Below are positions 2,887 through 25,472 of a stretch of 26,193 nucleotides of DNA, piece after piece. How positions within the stretch are numbered: the stretch's first letter is position 1; each line of letters opens with the position of its first letter. The position numbers and the translations under genes are program-made. The notes under the pieces are model-generated. The model did no database searches and was not told the DNA's origin. It saw nothing but the letters and a program-made list of their open reading frames with translations. The stretch lies in the IMG/VR virus record IMGVR_UViG_3300010233_000238, positions 1-26,193 of that record. One strand, 5' to 3'. The stretch comes from a virus.

Positions 2887-3246
2887 ATGTTATGGAGTAT
2901 TATTGATAGGACCGTTACACTCCTAACTCTAGTTATGCTTGTGGTGATGGTGTCAGTCATCTTCAGTAATAATAAAAGTTCGGAAGACTTCTCAGAACTT
3001 GAGAAGATGCTTACTGAATATAAGATTGAAAATCAAACAGTAAGATCAAAGAATATTGCTTACCTTGAGACACGTCTTAATAGAACACAAGAAACACAAG
3101 ATACTTATCAAGTTTTAACTGACCGTAGATTTATGACACTTGATGCACAAGTGAAGTTGTTGATGGAAGCTAACAAAGCTAATCAAAGAGTTATTAATAC
3201 GAATATTAACACTGTTGGTAATCTCACTACAACAACTTCTAAGTAA
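2887..3246 (+). CDS. Second membrane-anchored coiled-coil protein of the lysis cassette
   Basis: A 119-residue protein with a membrane segment near its N-terminus (about residues 8-27, rich in Leu, Val and Met) and a long charged, probably coiled-coil domain (about residues 33-95), ending in a Thr/Asn-rich tail. An AGGGG sits eight bases before the ATG. It is the last gene of the plus-strand operon; a strong terminator lies 65 bases downstream. It has the same plan as the preceding gene. I recognise no family; a lysis-related or superinfection-related membrane role is a guess from position. Confidence 0.6.
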   Translation: MLWSIIDRTVTLLTLVMLVVMVSVIFSNNKSSEDFSELEKMLTEYKIENQTVRSKNIAYLETRLNRTQETQDTYQVLTDRRFMTLDAQVKLLMEANKANQRVINTNINTVGNLTTTTSK

Positions 3247-4684: not shown

Positions 4685-5236
4685 ATGATTTTTGATCTGA
4701 ATTTTATAGAAGAGTGTTTTAACTTTAATTTTTCTACTGGTGTACTATCTTGGAAAGATTCAAGACCTTTAAATCATTTTGCAACGTGGAGGGGCTGGGT
4801 TAATTGGCACAACAAGAATCCCGGAAAGATCGCTGGCCATGTCGATACAAATAACTACAAAGCAGTCAAGTTAACTACAGAAGGAAAAGAATTTAATTAT
4901 AAACAACACCGATTAATTTATGCGCTCTATCATGAGGATACTGACCCTCCAGTAATTGATCACTTTGACGGAAATACAACCAATAACTCAATATCTAATT
5001 TACGACCAGCAGACAAAGAAATTAATGCCAAGAATAGGATTAAATCTGTAAGAAATAAATCTGGAATAACAGGTATTTGTCGTATTAAAGATCGACCTAA
5101 CTTGTGGCGAGCATCAATTAAATACAATGGAGAAGTTTTAACTAAAACAACTGGAGATTTCTTTGAAGCTTGTTGTTTTAGAAAATCCCTTGAAATTAAA
5201 GCTGGTTATACTAATCGGCATGGCAAGGATATTTAA
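4685..5236 (+). CDS. Free-standing HNH homing endonuclease
   Basis: A 183-residue protein of the HNH_3/AP2-linked phage endonuclease type. The core reads KQHRLIYALYH, then IDHFDGNTTNNSISNLR, with the paired His and Asn residues that bind a divalent metal and cut DNA. The C-terminal third (SGITGICRIKDRPNLWRASI and onward) is the AP2-like DNA-binding repeat common in these enzymes. The SD AGGAG is seven bases from the ATG. It is inserted on the opposite strand between the gp25-like and spike genes. Its last 4 bases overlap the spike gene's 3' end. It is a clear paralogue of the HNH protein at 24620-25201, sharing RP-x-x-HF-x-x-WRG, NNSISNL and a final HGK-acid-I. Confidence 0.92.
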   Translation: MIFDLNFIEECFNFNFSTGVLSWKDSRPLNHFATWRGWVNWHNKNPGKIAGHVDTNNYKAVKLTTEGKEFNYKQHRLIYALYHEDTDPPVIDHFDGNTTNNSISNLRPADKEINAKNRIKSVRNKSGITGICRIKDRPNLWRASIKYNGEVLTKTTGDFFEACCFRKSLEIKAGYTNRHGKDI

Positions 5237-7254: not shown

Positions 7255-8033
7255 TGGTTATCATTAGCTCCCGCTTGTCTCGATGGATCAACATCCACAG
7301 CTTTAGGGGGTTCACCTGAATCTGGCGTACTAGGTGCTTTACCTTTTTCAGACTTAGGTGCGGCTTTCTTCTTGAGTTTATCAGTGATATCTTTCGGGAT
7401 GGTTGCTTTCTTCAGAAAAGCAAAAGTAACTTGTTCCAAAGTCATATCAAAATAAAGTGCATAACCAGTATTTGCATCTTCTTTAAAAGTGATACTAGTG
7501 ATTACAAGGCTGTTTGTAATCTTCTTTAGAAGAGTTCCATCATATTCATACAATTCAACAAGCTGGATATTAGGATCAAACTGACCTGTTATATCATTGA
7601 AGATAACACCACTCATAAGAGATTCTAAAGCATCTTGAATCTGTGACAGCAAGTCTTCTCTTGCACTATCAACTACAACTTCAGGAGTGCTATCAGACAA
7701 GAATTGACCAATACTATCTGGGATGAATTTCTTCAAAACACTTTGATCTGTACTGTTCACAGATACTGGAGTAGGGGCCTCAAAACTGTTATAAGGAGAA
7801 TTCCCATCCAAGTCTTGAATCAAATAAGTGTTGGTTGAAATATCGGCACCAGAGATTACAGCAGACAGACTAATCTCATCATTAGATTTGATGTAGTGGT
7901 CTGTGATACTAGAACCAAGAGAAATAGGGTGTTTAGTGACTTCGCCTTTCTTTCTCTTGGTAGTGTTAGTGACAGCATCCATAAAAATCAGACCACCACT
8001 GTAAGCATCTCCCCACTTAATTGCAAATGACAT
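7251..8033 (-). CDS. Dit-like / tail-tube-proximal baseplate protein
   Basis: A 260-residue protein starting at the ATG at 8033, which has AGGAG ten bases upstream. The segment around KHPISLGSSITDHYIKSN, then ISLSAVISG, fits the N-terminal pattern of Dit-like phage tail proteins (tehPve-x-g-x-x-itDH). These link tail tube to baseplate hub. The C-terminal ~40 residues are Lys-, Pro- and Ala-rich and probably disordered. The upstream endonuclease gene runs 17 bases into this gene, and its coding sequence contains this gene's ribosome-binding site. Confidence 0.75.
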   Translation of the reverse strand: MSFAIKWGDAYSGGLIFMDAVTNTTKRKKGEVTKHPISLGSSITDHYIKSNDEISLSAVISGADISTNTYLIQDLDGNSPYNSFEAPTPVSVNSTDQSVLKKFIPDSIGQFLSDSTPEVVVDSAREDLLSQIQDALESLMSGVIFNDITGQFDPNIQLVELYEYDGTLLKKITNSLVITSITFKEDANTGYALYFDMTLEQVTFAFLKKATIPKDITDKLKKKAAPKSEKGKAPSTPDSGEPPKAVDVDPSRQAGANDNQ

Positions 8034-9036
8034 AGCTAAACTCCTCTGAAATTTCTCCGCCAAAGCTTTTGTATATGTCAATAATATCTTGTAATTTATT
8101 TACATAAGTAGTTTCAGTATAACCATCTGGCATTTCTTGCTTGTTTATAACACTTGTTGGAAGCCTTTCAAGACAAACCTTTTCAGCCTTTCTGCAAGAA
8201 ACCTTATCTGGAAAATTCCAATAAGAATGATTTTTTATATCAAAAATACAGTTCCTATGTTTTCTTTTATCAGCAGTGTTGGCAATACCAAATTTTATAG
8301 CGATAGGAAGCCCACTATCTTCTAATATTTTTATATAACCTTGAGTTGGGCTGTGTCTAGAACAATCACAACCCAAACTTCCGTTAATAATATTTGAAGC
8401 AAGTGCTTCTGCTGTTACTTCACACTTAGTACAGAAGTAACTCCAATACTCTTTTCTACCCCTTGTAGATATTCTGCCTGATCTTTTGAAATCTATACAA
8501 TAATAATGAGACTTCAGACCAATAAACATATTTATGAAATACTCGTCCGGGAGTATGTTGTGATTAGTCAAAATCTCACTCCTAGTTCTGTTTGAACAAC
8601 AAGGGCAGGATTGGCCCATGAAAAAATTATTGGCCGCCATTTTTGTCCAAACTCCATGTTCGGGGCACTCCAAGATAAGTTTGGTCGTGGCTTTATTATA
8701 AGGCTCAGAGAATCCTAAAAATCTATACCCTCTTTTAATCGCCTCCCTGTCCACCCTTATCATAAGCTGCGCTTCTGTCCAAACAGGTTTCTTTGAACAC
8801 CCACAAGGTATCTGTCCTGCCGATATAGCACTCTTAGTGCAAGAAAATACAGCATTTCCAAAAAGTTCAGGATCTTGTGCACAAATTTTACAGTGTGACA
8901 AATATAGTTTCTTACCCTTACCTCTATGGTCATACTGTTTACCACTCCAACCAAACACTTCTAGCTGATTTTCAGGGCCATAAACATAGCCTACATAATC
9001 GTCTGTATGCAACTCCGCTAAATTCTCTAATTTCAT
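8017..9036 (-). CDS. Zinc-ribbon-rich GIY-YIG-like putative homing endonuclease
   Basis: A 339-residue protein. The first ~230 residues carry three groups of Cys pairs: C49/C52/C66/C78-C80; C124/C144/C146-C147; and C202/C205/C223-C225. These look like repeated zinc-binding DNA-recognition modules, CapR-homology-like as far as I can tell. They are followed by QGYIKILEDSGLPIAIKFGI (about residues 232-251) with Arg258 and Glu285 or Glu290 (KAEKVCLERL). This corresponds to the GIY, YIG, Arg and Glu landmarks of a divergent GIY-YIG nuclease. The gene lies between the tape measure and Dit-like genes, where an endonuclease is not part of tail assembly. Start at 9036 has AAGG upstream. A degenerate or regulatory protein is the alternative. 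Confidence 0.75.
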   Translation of the reverse strand: MKLENLAELHTDDYVGYVYGPENQLEVFGWSGKQYDHRGKGKKLYLSHCKICAQDPELFGNAVFSCTKSAISAGQIPCGCSKKPVWTEAQLMIRVDREAIKRGYRFLGFSEPYNKATTKLILECPEHGVWTKMAANNFFMGQSCPCCSNRTRSEILTNHNILPDEYFINMFIGLKSHYYCIDFKRSGRISTRGRKEYWSYFCTKCEVTAEALASNIINGSLGCDCSRHSPTQGYIKILEDSGLPIAIKFGIANTADKRKHRNCIFDIKNHSYWNFPDKVSCRKAEKVCLERLPTSVINKQEMPDGYTETTYVNKLQDIIDIYKSFGGEISEEFSYVICN

Positions 9037-13525: not shown

Positions 13526-14419
13526 TTATATTGGAACTTCAAGTTCCTTGATTGTATTGTTTGGACGTAAACCATGAACACTTTCATAGCAGTCATCATA
13601 TGCAGCTAGGGCATCTTCTAGATTTCTATATGTCCTATCAAAAATCTTTTCTTTCTGATGTCTAAAAACAGCACGATAGTTACCATTTTCTCTTTTGTTT
13701 ACACCAAAATGTATACCTTGAGGCTTAAGTCTAATCTTACTACCGATTGTTCCTAAGTCTTCTTCGAAAAGATTCTTATTGAGTATCATCAGCAAGAAAT
13801 TTTTATCTTTGTTTAATATAACAGAGGCATCAATTAAGCTATTAAACCACAACCCAAGTACGTATACGGACTGGTGAGACTTAGAATTTATAGCGGGGTG
13901 GCAAACTTCACCAAGAGTTCCGTCAGACCTCCATTTATAAAAACTTTTCTGGTTCATCTGAAGAGCTTTTAGAGCCACTCTTTTTGTTGGGAACCAAAAT
14001 CCAGTTATGTAATAAGGATTAAGATCCCTTTTGGAGAGTCTTTCAGCCCCCAGATTCTTACATACATTATTCTTGTAATACTCAAAAAGAGCTTCAGAAA
14101 TTCTTAATCTAGATTCTTCTGAATGTACAGTCCCATTTTTATTAGGATGACCATCCATTAAGTTGTAGCCGTTGTTTATAGAATCATAAACTTTAATGGC
14201 CTTACTTTCTAAATCAATAATGTAATCTTCAGTTCCTTCACAAAGAATAGTCATGATAAAATTATCTTTACCGTACTTATTAATTGCTTTGGATAGTTTG
14301 GAGCAAGAAGAGCTTTTTGAGAAGTGCTCCTTCAGCCTCTGTTTAGGGCGTGCGGTTATTCCAAAATAAACTTTTTCATTTACAAGGTTAGTAATTTTAT
14401 ACAGATAAAACGATTTCAT
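13526..14419 (-). CDS. GIY-YIG homing endonuclease
   Basis: A 297-residue protein starting at the ATG at 14419, which has AGGAG eight bases upstream. The N-terminal ~90 residues are a GIY-YIG nuclease: FYLYKITN, then VYFGIT about ten residues on, an Arg/His-containing RPKQRLKEHF, SKLSKAINKYGKDNF, and the catalytic Glu71 in LESKAIKVYDSINNGYNL. A NUMOD3-like motif follows (VHSEESRLRISEAL), then DNA-binding segments, with an AP2-like end (GVNKRENGNYRAVFRHQ). This is the layout of SegB/I-TevI-type enzymes. It is placed between the sheath and first tube genes on the same strand as both, and its stop is 15 bases before the tube gene. Confidence 0.93.
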   Translation of the reverse strand: MKSFYLYKITNLVNEKVYFGITARPKQRLKEHFSKSSSCSKLSKAINKYGKDNFIMTILCEGTEDYIIDLESKAIKVYDSINNGYNLMDGHPNKNGTVHSEESRLRISEALFEYYKNNVCKNLGAERLSKRDLNPYYITGFWFPTKRVALKALQMNQKSFYKWRSDGTLGEVCHPAINSKSHQSVYVLGLWFNSLIDASVILNKDKNFLLMILNKNLFEEDLGTIGSKIRLKPQGIHFGVNKRENGNYRAVFRHQKEKIFDRTYRNLEDALAAYDDCYESVHGLRPNNTIKELEVPI

Positions 14420-14489
14420 CCCCAAGCTCCTAATAGTGAATTGACAACTGTACCATAGAAAGAATGAGAATGAAAGCTTTAATTAAAGT

Positions 14490-17622: not shown

Positions 17623-18096
17623 CTATTCCTTTATGTAACCATAATATTCTAGTTCGGCTTCCTGTCTTACTTTGATAGCTTCTTCTAAAGAATCATAACG
17701 GCCAAGTTTAATTAGCTTTTTATTCTTAGAGATATAAACTTCCCATTCACTTCTCTCTTTATTCCAACTTACACCAGTCTTACCTGATGTATTATGGGAT
17801 TTAAGAGTTTGGTTAAAGTTTTGCTCAGAGTAAGTTGTCCACCTACAATTGTCTAAAGAATAGTCCCCATTAACATCAATTCGATCTAATGTGGTTCCTT
17901 CAGGACGTTCACCCATATCTTCGAAGAAGTTTAATACTCCGTTGCTCGGGTCAAGCCAACGTTCACAAATCTTAATTCCTCTTCCACCACTATGCTCAAA
18001 AGTCTTATGGTTTTCATCAGTGACTCGTTGAATCATTGCTCTGTAAGAGGCATAAGTTTTTGTTTTGTATTTACCATGTTTCTCGTTGTGGTGCAT
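17623..18096 (-). CDS. HNH homing endonuclease (phage HNH plus AP2-like type)
   Basis: A 157-residue protein with the familiar phage HNH signature: TYASYRAMIQRV, HSGGRGIKICERW, DMGERPEGTTLDRID, then NGDYSLDNCRW, with the His, Asp and Asn of the beta-beta-alpha metal fold. The C-terminal third (SGKTGVSWNKERSEWEVYIS and so on) is an AP2-like DNA-binding unit. It is inserted between the small head gene and the adaptor gene. Its final codons carry the SD of the adaptor gene, whose ATG starts two bases after this stop. A 10-bp hairpin covers its own start codon and part of its SD, which suggests translation is held back on read-through mRNA. Confidence 0.93.
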   Translation of the reverse strand: MHHNEKHGKYKTKTYASYRAMIQRVTDENHKTFEHSGGRGIKICERWLDPSNGVLNFFEDMGERPEGTTLDRIDVNGDYSLDNCRWTTYSEQNFNQTLKSHNTSGKTGVSWNKERSEWEVYISKNKKLIKLGRYDSLEEAIKVRQEAELEYYGYIKE

Positions 18097-22935: not shown

Positions 22936-24623
22936 TTAAGCTCCTGCATTAAGGAAGGGGTTAGATTGAGTTAGGTTTGCGGATTGAAGGCCAGATAAGA
23001 AGTTGGGGATGATTTGTTTTTGGGCTAAAGTTATGAAGCTGTCCGCCACGGCATCCACTTGGTCATCCTTCCGGGCGCGGCTGCCATCAAAAGCCTCACA
23101 TTCTGCGATAAATACGTCATTCCACTCGCCATGAACGTACCTTACCAGACCAGCTTCGGATGCTGATGCGAATGGCATAAATCTCAAAACTTTTGATTTA
23201 TTTGTTGCTCTCATCCGTGCATAAAGACCCTCACTGAGGAATTCTTTAATCATCATTTGTCCCGCTGCTTTCCCAGCCTGCCCGGGCTCTTGTGGAATTA
23301 TGATTTGCGTACCTTCAGGATCTTCTTTGGCAACTTCAATCATGCGTTGTATGACTTCGCCAAATCTTGCTCGAAACCTAACAACGTCCATAATAATATA
23401 TAAACCAGACTTTGTTTTCCCCAGAAGAACACCCGCAGTCCAGTCAGGGTTAGGAAGTGCTTCTGATGGCAATGAGCCAGCAATATCCCATGCTCGGCAA
23501 TATTGCACGATATCCAAATCAAATGGATTGACAGGTTCACCCATCCAGTCTGCCTTCCAAAATCCGCTGGAATCCTCGCGGATGTCCCAATTCCCAAAAA
23601 GGTCGCGTTCTTTTTTTACACGTTTAAGACCTTGAAGGTTTGCAAGATATCCGGGGTTGGCTTTAATTAGCGGCGGGTTGTCATAGATCGTGGCAGAAAT
23701 AAACTGCAAAGATAGGGGAAGAACGTCTTGACCATAAGTCTCAAGAAGTTCTTCTCTACTATCTCCCCAAATCATTTCGTTGTTTTGACGAATAAACCAA
23801 CGAACTTTACCATCTCGTTCTGGGTTAGGACGGCCAGCGTTCTCTTCCCCTTTAGGGATAATCCACCAATCAATCCAACGTCTTAAAAATGAGTCCGGCG
23901 AGGGGTTACAAGTTAGAAATAAGTTAGGTTTCATCTTCGCTTTAGTACGAAGACGAGAAAGAACAACTAGTGTATGGTCCTCAGATATCTGAGTGGCCTC
24001 ATCTAGCATAGCCCCGGAAATTTGTAACCCACGATATTTTTCAGCATCATCGTCTGTATCAAGGTGAGACATAGAAATCTCAGCGCCTGATTCGAACGTG
24101 AACTTCATTTCCTTAACATTAACTTTTACTTTTGGATCATAAGCTCTGTAAAGCTGGCGGGCCTCATCGAATAGGCCACCGCTTTTTGTAAGAGTATTAG
24201 AATTTTTCCGGATTATGAAACCGCGATATTGAGGGTCATGTACCCAGCGGAGATGGCGAAGTAAGCCACAATATGACTTACCTCCGCCCATAGCCTTTCT
24301 GTTATAAAGCTCGCTAAGCTTTTCTTAAGTTTCCCTAAGTGTCGGACCAACTCTTAATTCTAAGAATTCTCTCTGTTTCGGAATCGCTTGATTCCTACTC
24401 TACTCACTTCCACATTACTGTGTGTTTTCGATGGCCTCTACGCACTGTCTTTAAACATTGGCACGGGATTGGCATAGACCTAAGTCCTTAGCTTTCCCCG
24501 TTTAAGAGAGTTTTAAATGGAGGCGCTAAGTTCACCACCATATACAATTATGTCACTCTCGGCCGACAAGAACCAACTTTGCTTCAAACTTGCCGGTGAG
24601 AATGAATACTCAAAATCTGTCAT
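22936..24623 (-). CDS. terL: Terminase large subunit, split by a group I intron (two exons)
   Basis: The packaging motor ATPase and nuclease, about 482 residues after splicing. Exon 1 is 24623-24534 (30 codons, MTDFEYSFSPASL through IIVYGG). Exon 2 is 24294-22936, beginning AMGGGKSYCGLL. Joined, they give the usual YGGAMGGGKS Walker A. Exon 2 also has Walker B (ISGAMLDEAT), motif III (LFLTCNPSP), and nuclease acidic residues in YCRAWDIAG, YIIMDVV and RKDDQVDAVADSF. Counting from the Met in exon 2, these are D269, D302 and D410/D413. An ATG in exon 2 at 24291 could mislead gene callers into a start at the Walker A. The exon 1 ATG overlaps the upstream HNH stop (ATGA). Confidence 0.95.
24295..24533 (-). 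ncRNA. Group I intron, ORF-less, in the terminase gene (td-like)
   Basis: 239 nt between exon 1 ending ATGGTGGT and exon 2 starting GCTATGGGC; the last intron base is G. Visible structure (intron numbering): P1, exon AUGGUGGU with GCCUCCAU at 10-17, giving the required U.G pair at the splice site; P3, CUCUCU 24-29 with AGAGAG 160-165; P4, ACGGG 33-37 with CCCGU 67-71; P8, AAUUC 166-170 with GAAUU 174-178; P9, CUUAGG-GAAA-CUUAAG 195-210; a further 6-bp stem, AAAGCU/AGCUUU, at 212-228. The UAAACGGGGAA and CAAUCCCGUGC core words and the CGAAAC before P3' match the T4 td intron. P7 is only tentatively placed. Confidence 0.93.
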
Positions 24624-25201
24624 CTTGAAATTTCTTTCCCGTGATTTTCAGAATAACCGTACTCTACTTCCCATGCTTTTCGAGCATTAGCAGCATCTTC
24701 CAACTCTTTAAAGATACCTAGATAATGTCTGACACGCTTTCCGTCAATGACTTCTTGACCTTCGGCTTGCCATTTACCTGTTCTTTTGTGGAAGGATACA
24801 CCTACAACGCCGGAAGAGTTGTTTGTATATTTAGCACGATTTCTGTGGTTTAATTTATCAACACTAAGCTGTAAATTAGATATTGAATTATTTTGAGTAT
24901 TCAAATCAATATGGTCAATATCCTCAGAAGGCCACTCACCATTTACATATAGCCAAGCAAGTCTATGAGCCTTATACAACTTTCCACACAGCCCAATTAC
25001 AACGTAAGGGGATGGATTCCTTTTTGTTGCTGGACTCAAATAGCCAGCTTCAAGTGTAGGACTTATATTACTGAAGAAGCCATTTTTACCTCTCCAATCT
25101 TTGAAGTGGTAATCTGGTCTATCTAACTTCCAAATAAACTTTCCAGTTTCTGGATTGTAGTCTAGAGCTTCTTTTAGATATTCTTGCGTAACTTCATTCA
25201 T
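24620..25201 (-). CDS. HNH homing endonuclease next to the intron-bearing terminase gene
   Basis: A 193-residue protein of the same subfamily as the HNH gene at 4685-5236. It has FIWKLDRPDYHFKDWRG, then KAHRLAWLYVNGEWP, IDHIDLNTQNNSISNLQ, and an AP2-like end (SGVVGVSFHKRTGKWQAEG), finishing HGKEISR. The stop TGA overlaps the terminase ATG (ATGA). The intron begins only 90 bases beyond, and the HNH gene itself is outside the intron. This adjacency suggests the enzyme cuts intronless terminase genes, so that intron and endonuclease gene move together (collaborative homing); that is inference. AAGGAA lies ten bases upstream of the ATG. Confidence 0.92.
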   Translation of the reverse strand: MNEVTQEYLKEALDYNPETGKFIWKLDRPDYHFKDWRGKNGFFSNISPTLEAGYLSPATKRNPSPYVVIGLCGKLYKAHRLAWLYVNGEWPSEDIDHIDLNTQNNSISNLQLSVDKLNHRNRAKYTNNSSGVVGVSFHKRTGKWQAEGQEVIDGKRVRHYLGIFKELEDAANARKAWEVEYGYSENHGKEISR

Positions 25202-25256: not shown

Positions 25257-25472
25257 TTATTCAGGCTTAATGATTGCGTAGACAGCTTCAGTGACCCACT
25301 CAGGGATGAAGTCGAAATCTACATGTTCTTCAGTGTCACCAACGATCTTTACACAAAAGCCGGGAGTATCAACTAGATAACAATAAGTTTCTTCTTCACC
25401 GTCTGGTTGTACCAAAGACACAATAAGTTGTCTTGAGTTTGCAATCATTTCTTCTACATCAACTTCTTTCAT
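25257..25472 (-). CDS. Small acidic hypothetical protein
   Basis: A 71-residue, strongly acidic protein beginning MKEVDVEEMIANSRQLIVSL and ending AVYAIIKPE. It has alternating beta-like hydrophobic residues and no membrane segment, signal peptide or motif that I know. The start is well supported by AGGAG six bases upstream. It is the second gene of the packaging operon, between an unknown 115-residue gene and the HNH/terminase pair. Small terminase subunits often sit here, but this protein lacks the expected helix-turn-helix and is short, so I do not name it. Confidence 0.65.
   Translation of the reverse strand: MKEVDVEEMIANSRQLIVSLVQPDGEEETYCYLVDTPGFCVKIVGDTEEHVDFDFIPEWVTEAVYAIIKPE

What the first reader, a model, noticed from the sequence alone, without database searches (positions are those of the whole stretch)
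24295..25201. Free-standing HNH gene coupled to an intron-bearing terminase: candidate collaborative homing unit
The intron has no ORF of its own. An HNH gene lies outside it, 87 bp from the intron's first base, and overlaps the terminase start by ATGA. Established examples (an HNH gene next to psbA introns in cyanophages, and free-standing enzymes beside T7-like polymerase introns) show that such an enzyme can cut the intronless exon junction and spread both elements. The placement here, upstream of exon 1 and translationally coupled to an essential packaging gene, would be a compact version of this.
Basis: inference. Interest (0 to 1): 0.82.

Follow-up and report, generated by a model that had tools for sequence, protein, structure and literature searches.

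The report
HNH gene beside mobile terminase intron
In this phage a self-splicing intron without its own gene sits in the ATP-binding loop of the DNA-packaging enzyme gene, with a separate DNA-cutting homing gene directly in front; relatives show that the intron jumps between phages and that such cutting genes are swapped at this spot, an arrangement already described in the cholera phage ICP1.

Summary
On the minus strand, a 193-aa HNH_3–AP2 homing-type endonuclease gene (25201–24620) overlaps terL exon 1 by ATGA; exon 1 (90 nt) is followed by an ORF-less 239-nt group I intron (24533–24295) that splits the Walker A codons (YGG^AMGGGKS). For it: between the window and its closest relative (L002), HNH, exon 1 and intron are much younger (dS about 0.2; intron 99%) than terL exon 2 (dS 0.70), so the pair travelled together. 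The intron is clearly mobile (97% identical in terminases only 50% alike). Against a private pairing: the same intron occurs with at least four other HNH families in the same slot (12 of 16 intron-bearing haplotypes have some homing gene there) or with none. The same HNH occurs with a different intron subtype, and a 62% relative sits beside an intact, intronless junction. The association of a slot gene with the intron is not significant (p = 0.12), although the slot is a hot spot (12/16 upstream of terL against 2/16 downstream, p = 0.001). ICP1 gp130–gp129–gp128 has the same architecture (Barth 2023). New member of a known kind; cleavage of the junction remains untested.

The parts
24620..25201 (-). 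free-standing HNH_3-AP2 homing-type endonuclease gene, 193 aa
   Evidence: Pfam HNH_3 E 4e-15 and AP2; PHROG 99 HNH endonuclease E 6e-57; conserved D96/H97/N105/N109/N118; profile match to I-HmuI 1u3e E 2e-6; AlphaFold model with a C-terminal three-strand-plus-helix AP2-like unit
24534..24623 (-). terL exon 1, 30 codons, starts in the ATGA overlap with the HNH stop
   Evidence: sequence; restores the TerL N-terminus when joined; homologous to intronless L004 and L052
24295..24533 (-). ORF-less group I intron, 239 nt, ending in G, inserted in phase 0 in the Walker A codons
   Evidence: Rfam RF00028 E 1.2e-8; covariation in 16 relatives; boundaries from intronless relatives and P1/P10 pairing
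22936..24294 (-). terL exon 2
   Evidence: Pfam Terminase_6N and Terminase_6C
25257..25472 (-). small gene upstream of the homing-gene slot, conserved in some relatives (flank marker, not part of the unit)
   Evidence: tblastn matches in L002, L013 and L014

Best explanation
The HNH gene is a free-standing homing endonuclease gene that occupies a hot spot directly in front of terL. The ORF-less group I intron in the terL P-loop depends on endonucleases of this slot for its spread. The HNH enzyme most likely cuts terL of a competing intronless phage at or near the P-loop junction. Repair from the donor copies HNH, exon 1 and intron together, and the intron hides the site from self-cleavage (collaborative homing). 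The partnership is loose: over time the intron is served by different HNH families that replace one another in the slot. Shown here: the anatomy, the intron's mobility, turnover in the slot and one joint transfer block. Inferred: cleavage at the junction, protection by the intron, and co-infection as the setting.
For: Window against L002: HNH dS 0.225, exon 1 dS 0.197, intron 237/239 identical, exon 2 dS 0.70; fourfold-site differences 9/75 against 76/199, p = 1.7e-5. Intron 97% identical to that of L029 although the TerLs are 50% identical; L028 and L031 introns 94% with TerLs 35%. All 13 viral contigs found by the intron core motif, and one MAG contig, have the intron at the same P-loop site. 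Five HNH families (PHROG 99, 59, 374, 2081, 953) occupy the slot in 12 of 16 intron-bearing haplotypes, against 2/16 in the terL-portal slot, p = 0.001. Slot gene 374 is 67% identical between L012 and L028 although their TerLs are 40% identical, both with the intron.
Against: No cleavage data. The intron is present without any slot gene in L003, L010, L031 and L036. A 62% HNH relative (L020) sits beside an intronless junction that is identical over the 12 nt 5' of the insertion site, which predicts self-cleavage unless its specificity has drifted. Slot genes also precede intronless terL (L004, L056, L061, Salmonella phages IME207 and INT55). Slot gene against intron presence: p = 0.12. The window-L002 block could be ordinary recombination, and its left edge is not sharp: the upstream gene has few fourfold differences (4/28) although its dS is 0.62.
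Confidence: 0.6

Rival explanations
1. Hot spot without collaboration: the region in front of terL collects homing genes that cut elsewhere in terL or in the upstream gene, and the intron moves independently or merely hitch-hikes.
For: Homing genes precede intronless terL too; slot gene and intron are not significantly associated; Barth 2023 calls the region upstream of terminases a hot spot for different HEG classes.
Against: The intron has no endonuclease of its own yet moves between distant phages at one site, so some enzyme in trans is likely; HNH, exon 1 and intron form one young block in the window and L002.
Confidence: 0.27
2. HEG turnover: the intron once carried its own endonuclease, lost it, and free-standing genes later settled next door without being needed for intron mobility.
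For: Proposed for ICP1 by Barth 2023; in L014 a second terL intron has an internal HNH gene, and in L013 the matching intron is empty.
Against: None of the 16 aligned P-loop introns is long enough to hold an endonuclease ORF; their lengths are 220-248 nt; recent movement of ORF-less copies needs a current driver.
Confidence: 0.15
3. The intron spreads by reverse splicing into the GGUGGU P-loop sequence, without DNA cleavage.
For: Window and L029 share only about 13 contiguous nt around the junction, enough for the guide sequence, although their introns are 97% identical.
Against: The intron was found only at this one site in every contig with its core motif; exon 1 is co-transferred in the window and L002, which fits DNA repair.
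Confidence: 0.1
4. The HNH protein is a structural partner of the packaging motor, like HK97 gp74.
For: It lies next to terL and overlaps it by ATGA; HK97 has an HNH gene by its terminase that helps cos cleavage (discussed in PMC10448857).
Against: It is absent or replaced in most relatives with 70-98% identical TerL; it has homing-type HNH_3-AP2 architecture.
Confidence: 0.03

Closest known systems
Vibrio phage ICP1 gp130 (T5orf172 HEG) - gp129/gp128 (split terL)
   Same: The HEG overlaps terL exon 1 by 4 nt; short exon 1, ORF-less intron in the terL P-loop, long exon 2; splicing proven by RNA-seq and RT-PCR and discussed as collaborative homing (PMC10448857)
   Different: The HEG is of the T5orf172 class, not HNH_3-AP2; the inferred intron site is 3 nt downstream (YGGA^AGGGKS against YGG^AMGGGKS)
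Cyanophage S-PM2 F-CphI / psbA intron (collaborative homing)
   Same: Free-standing enzyme beside a group I intron in a conserved gene
   Different: F-CphI is of Endo VII type, and its cleavage of the intronless allele and protection by the intron are proven (PMC6083498); neither is shown here
T7-like phage introns with free-standing enzymes
   Same: Same logic of an enzyme in trans
   Different: Different gene and enzymes; known here only through other papers
I-HmuI-type HNH homing endonucleases (PDB 1u3e)
   Same: HNH_3 catalytic region, profile E 2e-6
   Different: I-HmuI is intron-encoded (from memory); here the gene is free-standing and has an AP2-like DNA-binding part

Membership tests
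Group I intron | conserved core secondary structure, P1 with U-G at the 5' splice site, terminal G | tested here: met
   Rfam RF00028 E 1.2e-8, orthologues above the gathering score, 28 covarying pairs, P1/P10
Group I intron | self-splicing of the transcript | not testable with these tools
   needs RT-PCR or in vitro splicing; the ICP1 analogue was shown to splice
HNH_3-AP2 free-standing homing endonuclease | HNH_3 catalytic motif with AP2-like DNA-binding domain, optional gene between conserved genes | tested here: met
   presence/absence in relatives
HNH_3-AP2 free-standing homing endonuclease | site-specific DNA cleavage | not testable with these tools
   needs purified protein
Collaborative homing pair | ORF-less intron and free-standing HEG next to each other | tested here: met
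Collaborative homing pair | enzyme cuts the intronless allele at the intron site, intron blocks cutting | not testable with these tools
   L020 keeps an HNH relative beside an intact 5' junction without intron, a hint against or a sign of drifted specificity
Collaborative homing pair | HEG and intron are inherited together | tested here: inconclusive
   one young joint block (window/L002, p = 1.7e-5), but no overall association of slot gene and intron (p = 0.12)
HK97 gp74-like packaging HNH | conserved component of the packaging module | tested here: not met
   absent or replaced in close relatives

The most novel reading that the evidence does not exclude
One ORF-less P-loop intron is served in trans by several unrelated, mutually replaceable HNH families, so the partnership is with the target site and not with one enzyme: a many-enzymes, one-intron form of collaborative homing that would explain how such pairs arise and persist.
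Probability: 0.35. Interest if true: 0.7.

Novelty: new member of a known kind. Interest (0 to 1): 0.48.

Why it matters
How an endonuclease and an intron that live apart come to cooperate is an open question: Barth 2023 states that it is not clear how such loci arise. This phage group offers a natural series at one site: same intron with different enzymes, same enzyme with different introns, enzyme alone, intron alone, and neither. Testing a handful of enzymes on one short target would decide between convergence on the site and chance neighbourhood.

Tried and rejected
The packaging-partner reading of HNH was rejected because the gene is optional. Chance adjacency was considered: the window has four more homing-type genes, so one beside terL is not rare by itself; the terL-portal control slot (2/16) argues for a real hot spot. 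I first thought most Barba phages lack a terL intron; the sequence shows that Barba1S has a different one at the P-loop, so that contrast was dropped. ICP1's blast match lay in the tape measure region and had to be replaced by a direct look at its terL. Rfam gave no match for the ICP1 and Barba1S terL introns, so their boundaries rest on reading the sequence. Two of three genome contigs pattern matches (L206, L207) were chance. No fold search was run; the HNH model (mean pLDDT 75) was used only for secondary structure. Divergence of HNH between window and L006 did not differ clearly from that of terL (27/55 against 94/151 fourfold sites), so no recent transfer is claimed there.

Full report
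Observation. The window's terL is on the minus strand. Its annotatable ORF (22936–24291) starts at MGGGKSY, inside the Walker A motif, and lacks the N-terminus. Upstream, a 90-nt exon 1 (24623–24534) reads MTDFEYSFSPASLKQSWFLSAESDIIVYGG. Between them lies a 239-nt group I intron (24533–24295). Rfam RF00028 matches it over its full length at E 1.2e-8, though at 39.4 bits, under the gathering score of 50; orthologous introns at the same site in L006 and L005 exceed the gathering score. Joining the exons gives YGG^AMGGGKSY in frame. The HNH gene (25201–24620) ends in the ATGA that starts terL.

The intron. A 16-member alignment supports the fold: 48 consensus pairs, 28 with changes on both sides. 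P1 pairs UGGUGGU of exon 1 with the guide GCCUCCA. P10 pairs UAGC with exon 2 GCUA in the window, L002 and L006, and UUGC/UUGU with GCAA in L010, L012, L013, L014 and L038, a covariation with the exon. L003 has the UUGC type next to a GCUA exon, as if freshly acquired from a GCAA donor. A scan of 2.9 million viral contigs for an 18-nt core motif found 13 contigs, all with the intron at this terL site, although the TerLs are as little as 34–50% identical. Window and L029 introns are 97% identical while their TerLs are 50% identical. The intron is thus mobile, and no aligned copy is long enough to hold an endonuclease ORF (220–248 nt).

The HNH gene. It has HNH_3 and AP2-like parts, belongs to PHROG 99, keeps the catalytic-type D-H-N residues and matches I-HmuI at profile level (E 2e-6). 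A model shows AP2-like three strands and a helix at the C-terminus.

Comparison of relatives. TerL relatives give all combinations. Intron and the same HNH: window, L002, L006–L008. Intron and another HNH family in the same slot: L005 (PHROG 59), L012, L028, L033 and L029 (374; L033 by identity to L028), L013 and L014 (2081), L038 (953), and by inspection L205. Intron and no slot gene: L003, L010–L011, L031, L036. Slot gene and no intron: L004 (T5orf172-like; recoded junction TACGGCGGG instead of TATGGTGGT) and L020 (62% HNH relative with the same 12 nt 5' of the site). Neither: L009, L052–L053. Two intron subtypes sit at this one site, 52–58% identical to each other; the HNH occurs with both (window and L002 with one, L006–L008 with the other). 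Counting near-identical contigs once (by hand), 12 of 16 intron-bearing haplotypes have a homing gene directly upstream of terL and 2 of 16 directly downstream (L005, L036), p = 0.001. Among intronless haplotypes the slot is filled in 2 of 4 close ones and, with distant ones added (one of them intein-like, L055), in 5 of 12; the difference from intron-bearing ones is not significant (p = 0.12).

Joint transfer. Between the window and L002, exon 2 has dS 0.70 and the portal gene 63/162 fourfold differences, while HNH has dS 0.225, exon 1 0.197 and the intron two differences in 239 nt. The contrast in fourfold sites is 9/75 against 76/199, p = 1.7e-5. The high-identity stretch runs to about 80 nt inside exon 2 (24214), where identity falls from 93% to 78%. 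This is what co-conversion around a cut near the junction would leave. The upstream gene is ambiguous (dS 0.62 but 4/28 fourfold differences), so the left edge is uncertain. Between the window and L003 the intron alone is young (98% over aligned bases against 85–89% in exon 2) with an unrelated exon 1 and no HNH, so the intron also moves without this gene.

Known precedent. In ICP1 a T5orf172 HEG (gp130) overlaps the short terL exon gp129 by 4 nt, followed by an ORF-less intron in the P-loop and exon gp128. Barth and colleagues proved splicing, named collaborative homing as the reading, offered HEG turnover as the alternative, and described the region upstream of terminases as a hot spot for HEGs. 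The present case is therefore a new member with another enzyme class. The added value is the comparative series, which shows exchange of partners at one site.

Conclusion. That this is a mobile intron beside a homing gene is near certain. That the HNH enzyme cuts the joined exons and drags the intron along is the best explanation of the block in L002 and of the recurrence of HNH genes in the slot, at about 0.6. The main doubt is that the slot is a hot spot in intronless phages too and that L020 carries an HNH relative beside an intact site.

Noticed in passing
window 4685-5236 (+), 8017-9036 (-), 13526-14425 (-), 17623-18096 (-): Four further homing-type genes: HNH (PHROG 99, on the opposite strand to its late-gene neighbours), CapR/T5orf172-like (PHROG 681), GIY-YIG, and HNH/AP2 (PHROG 374).
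   Followed up: partly
L013 6230-6496, L014 6164-6931: A second intron-like insertion in terL near residue 441 (Rfam group I match in L014); L014 has an HNH gene inside it, L013 does not.
   Followed up: partly
L060 236-2677, L075 1414-3573: Intein-like insertions at the terL P-loop, a third kind of element at the same site.
   Followed up: no
L199 about 2915-3147 (Barba19A), L208 about 2485-2730 (Barba1S): Rheinheimera Barba phages carry unannotated introns in the terL P-loop, of two different kinds; the annotated terL is exon 2 only.
   Followed up: partly
L004 2848-2940: Intronless close relative with many synonymous changes in exon 1 and at the junction, next to a T5orf172-like gene; it may be a resistant allele.
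   Followed up: partly
L199 2590-2760, L036 (reverse complement) 909-1049: Short helix-turn-helix-like ORF pieces just upstream of exon 1 that look like remnants of homing genes.
   Followed up: no
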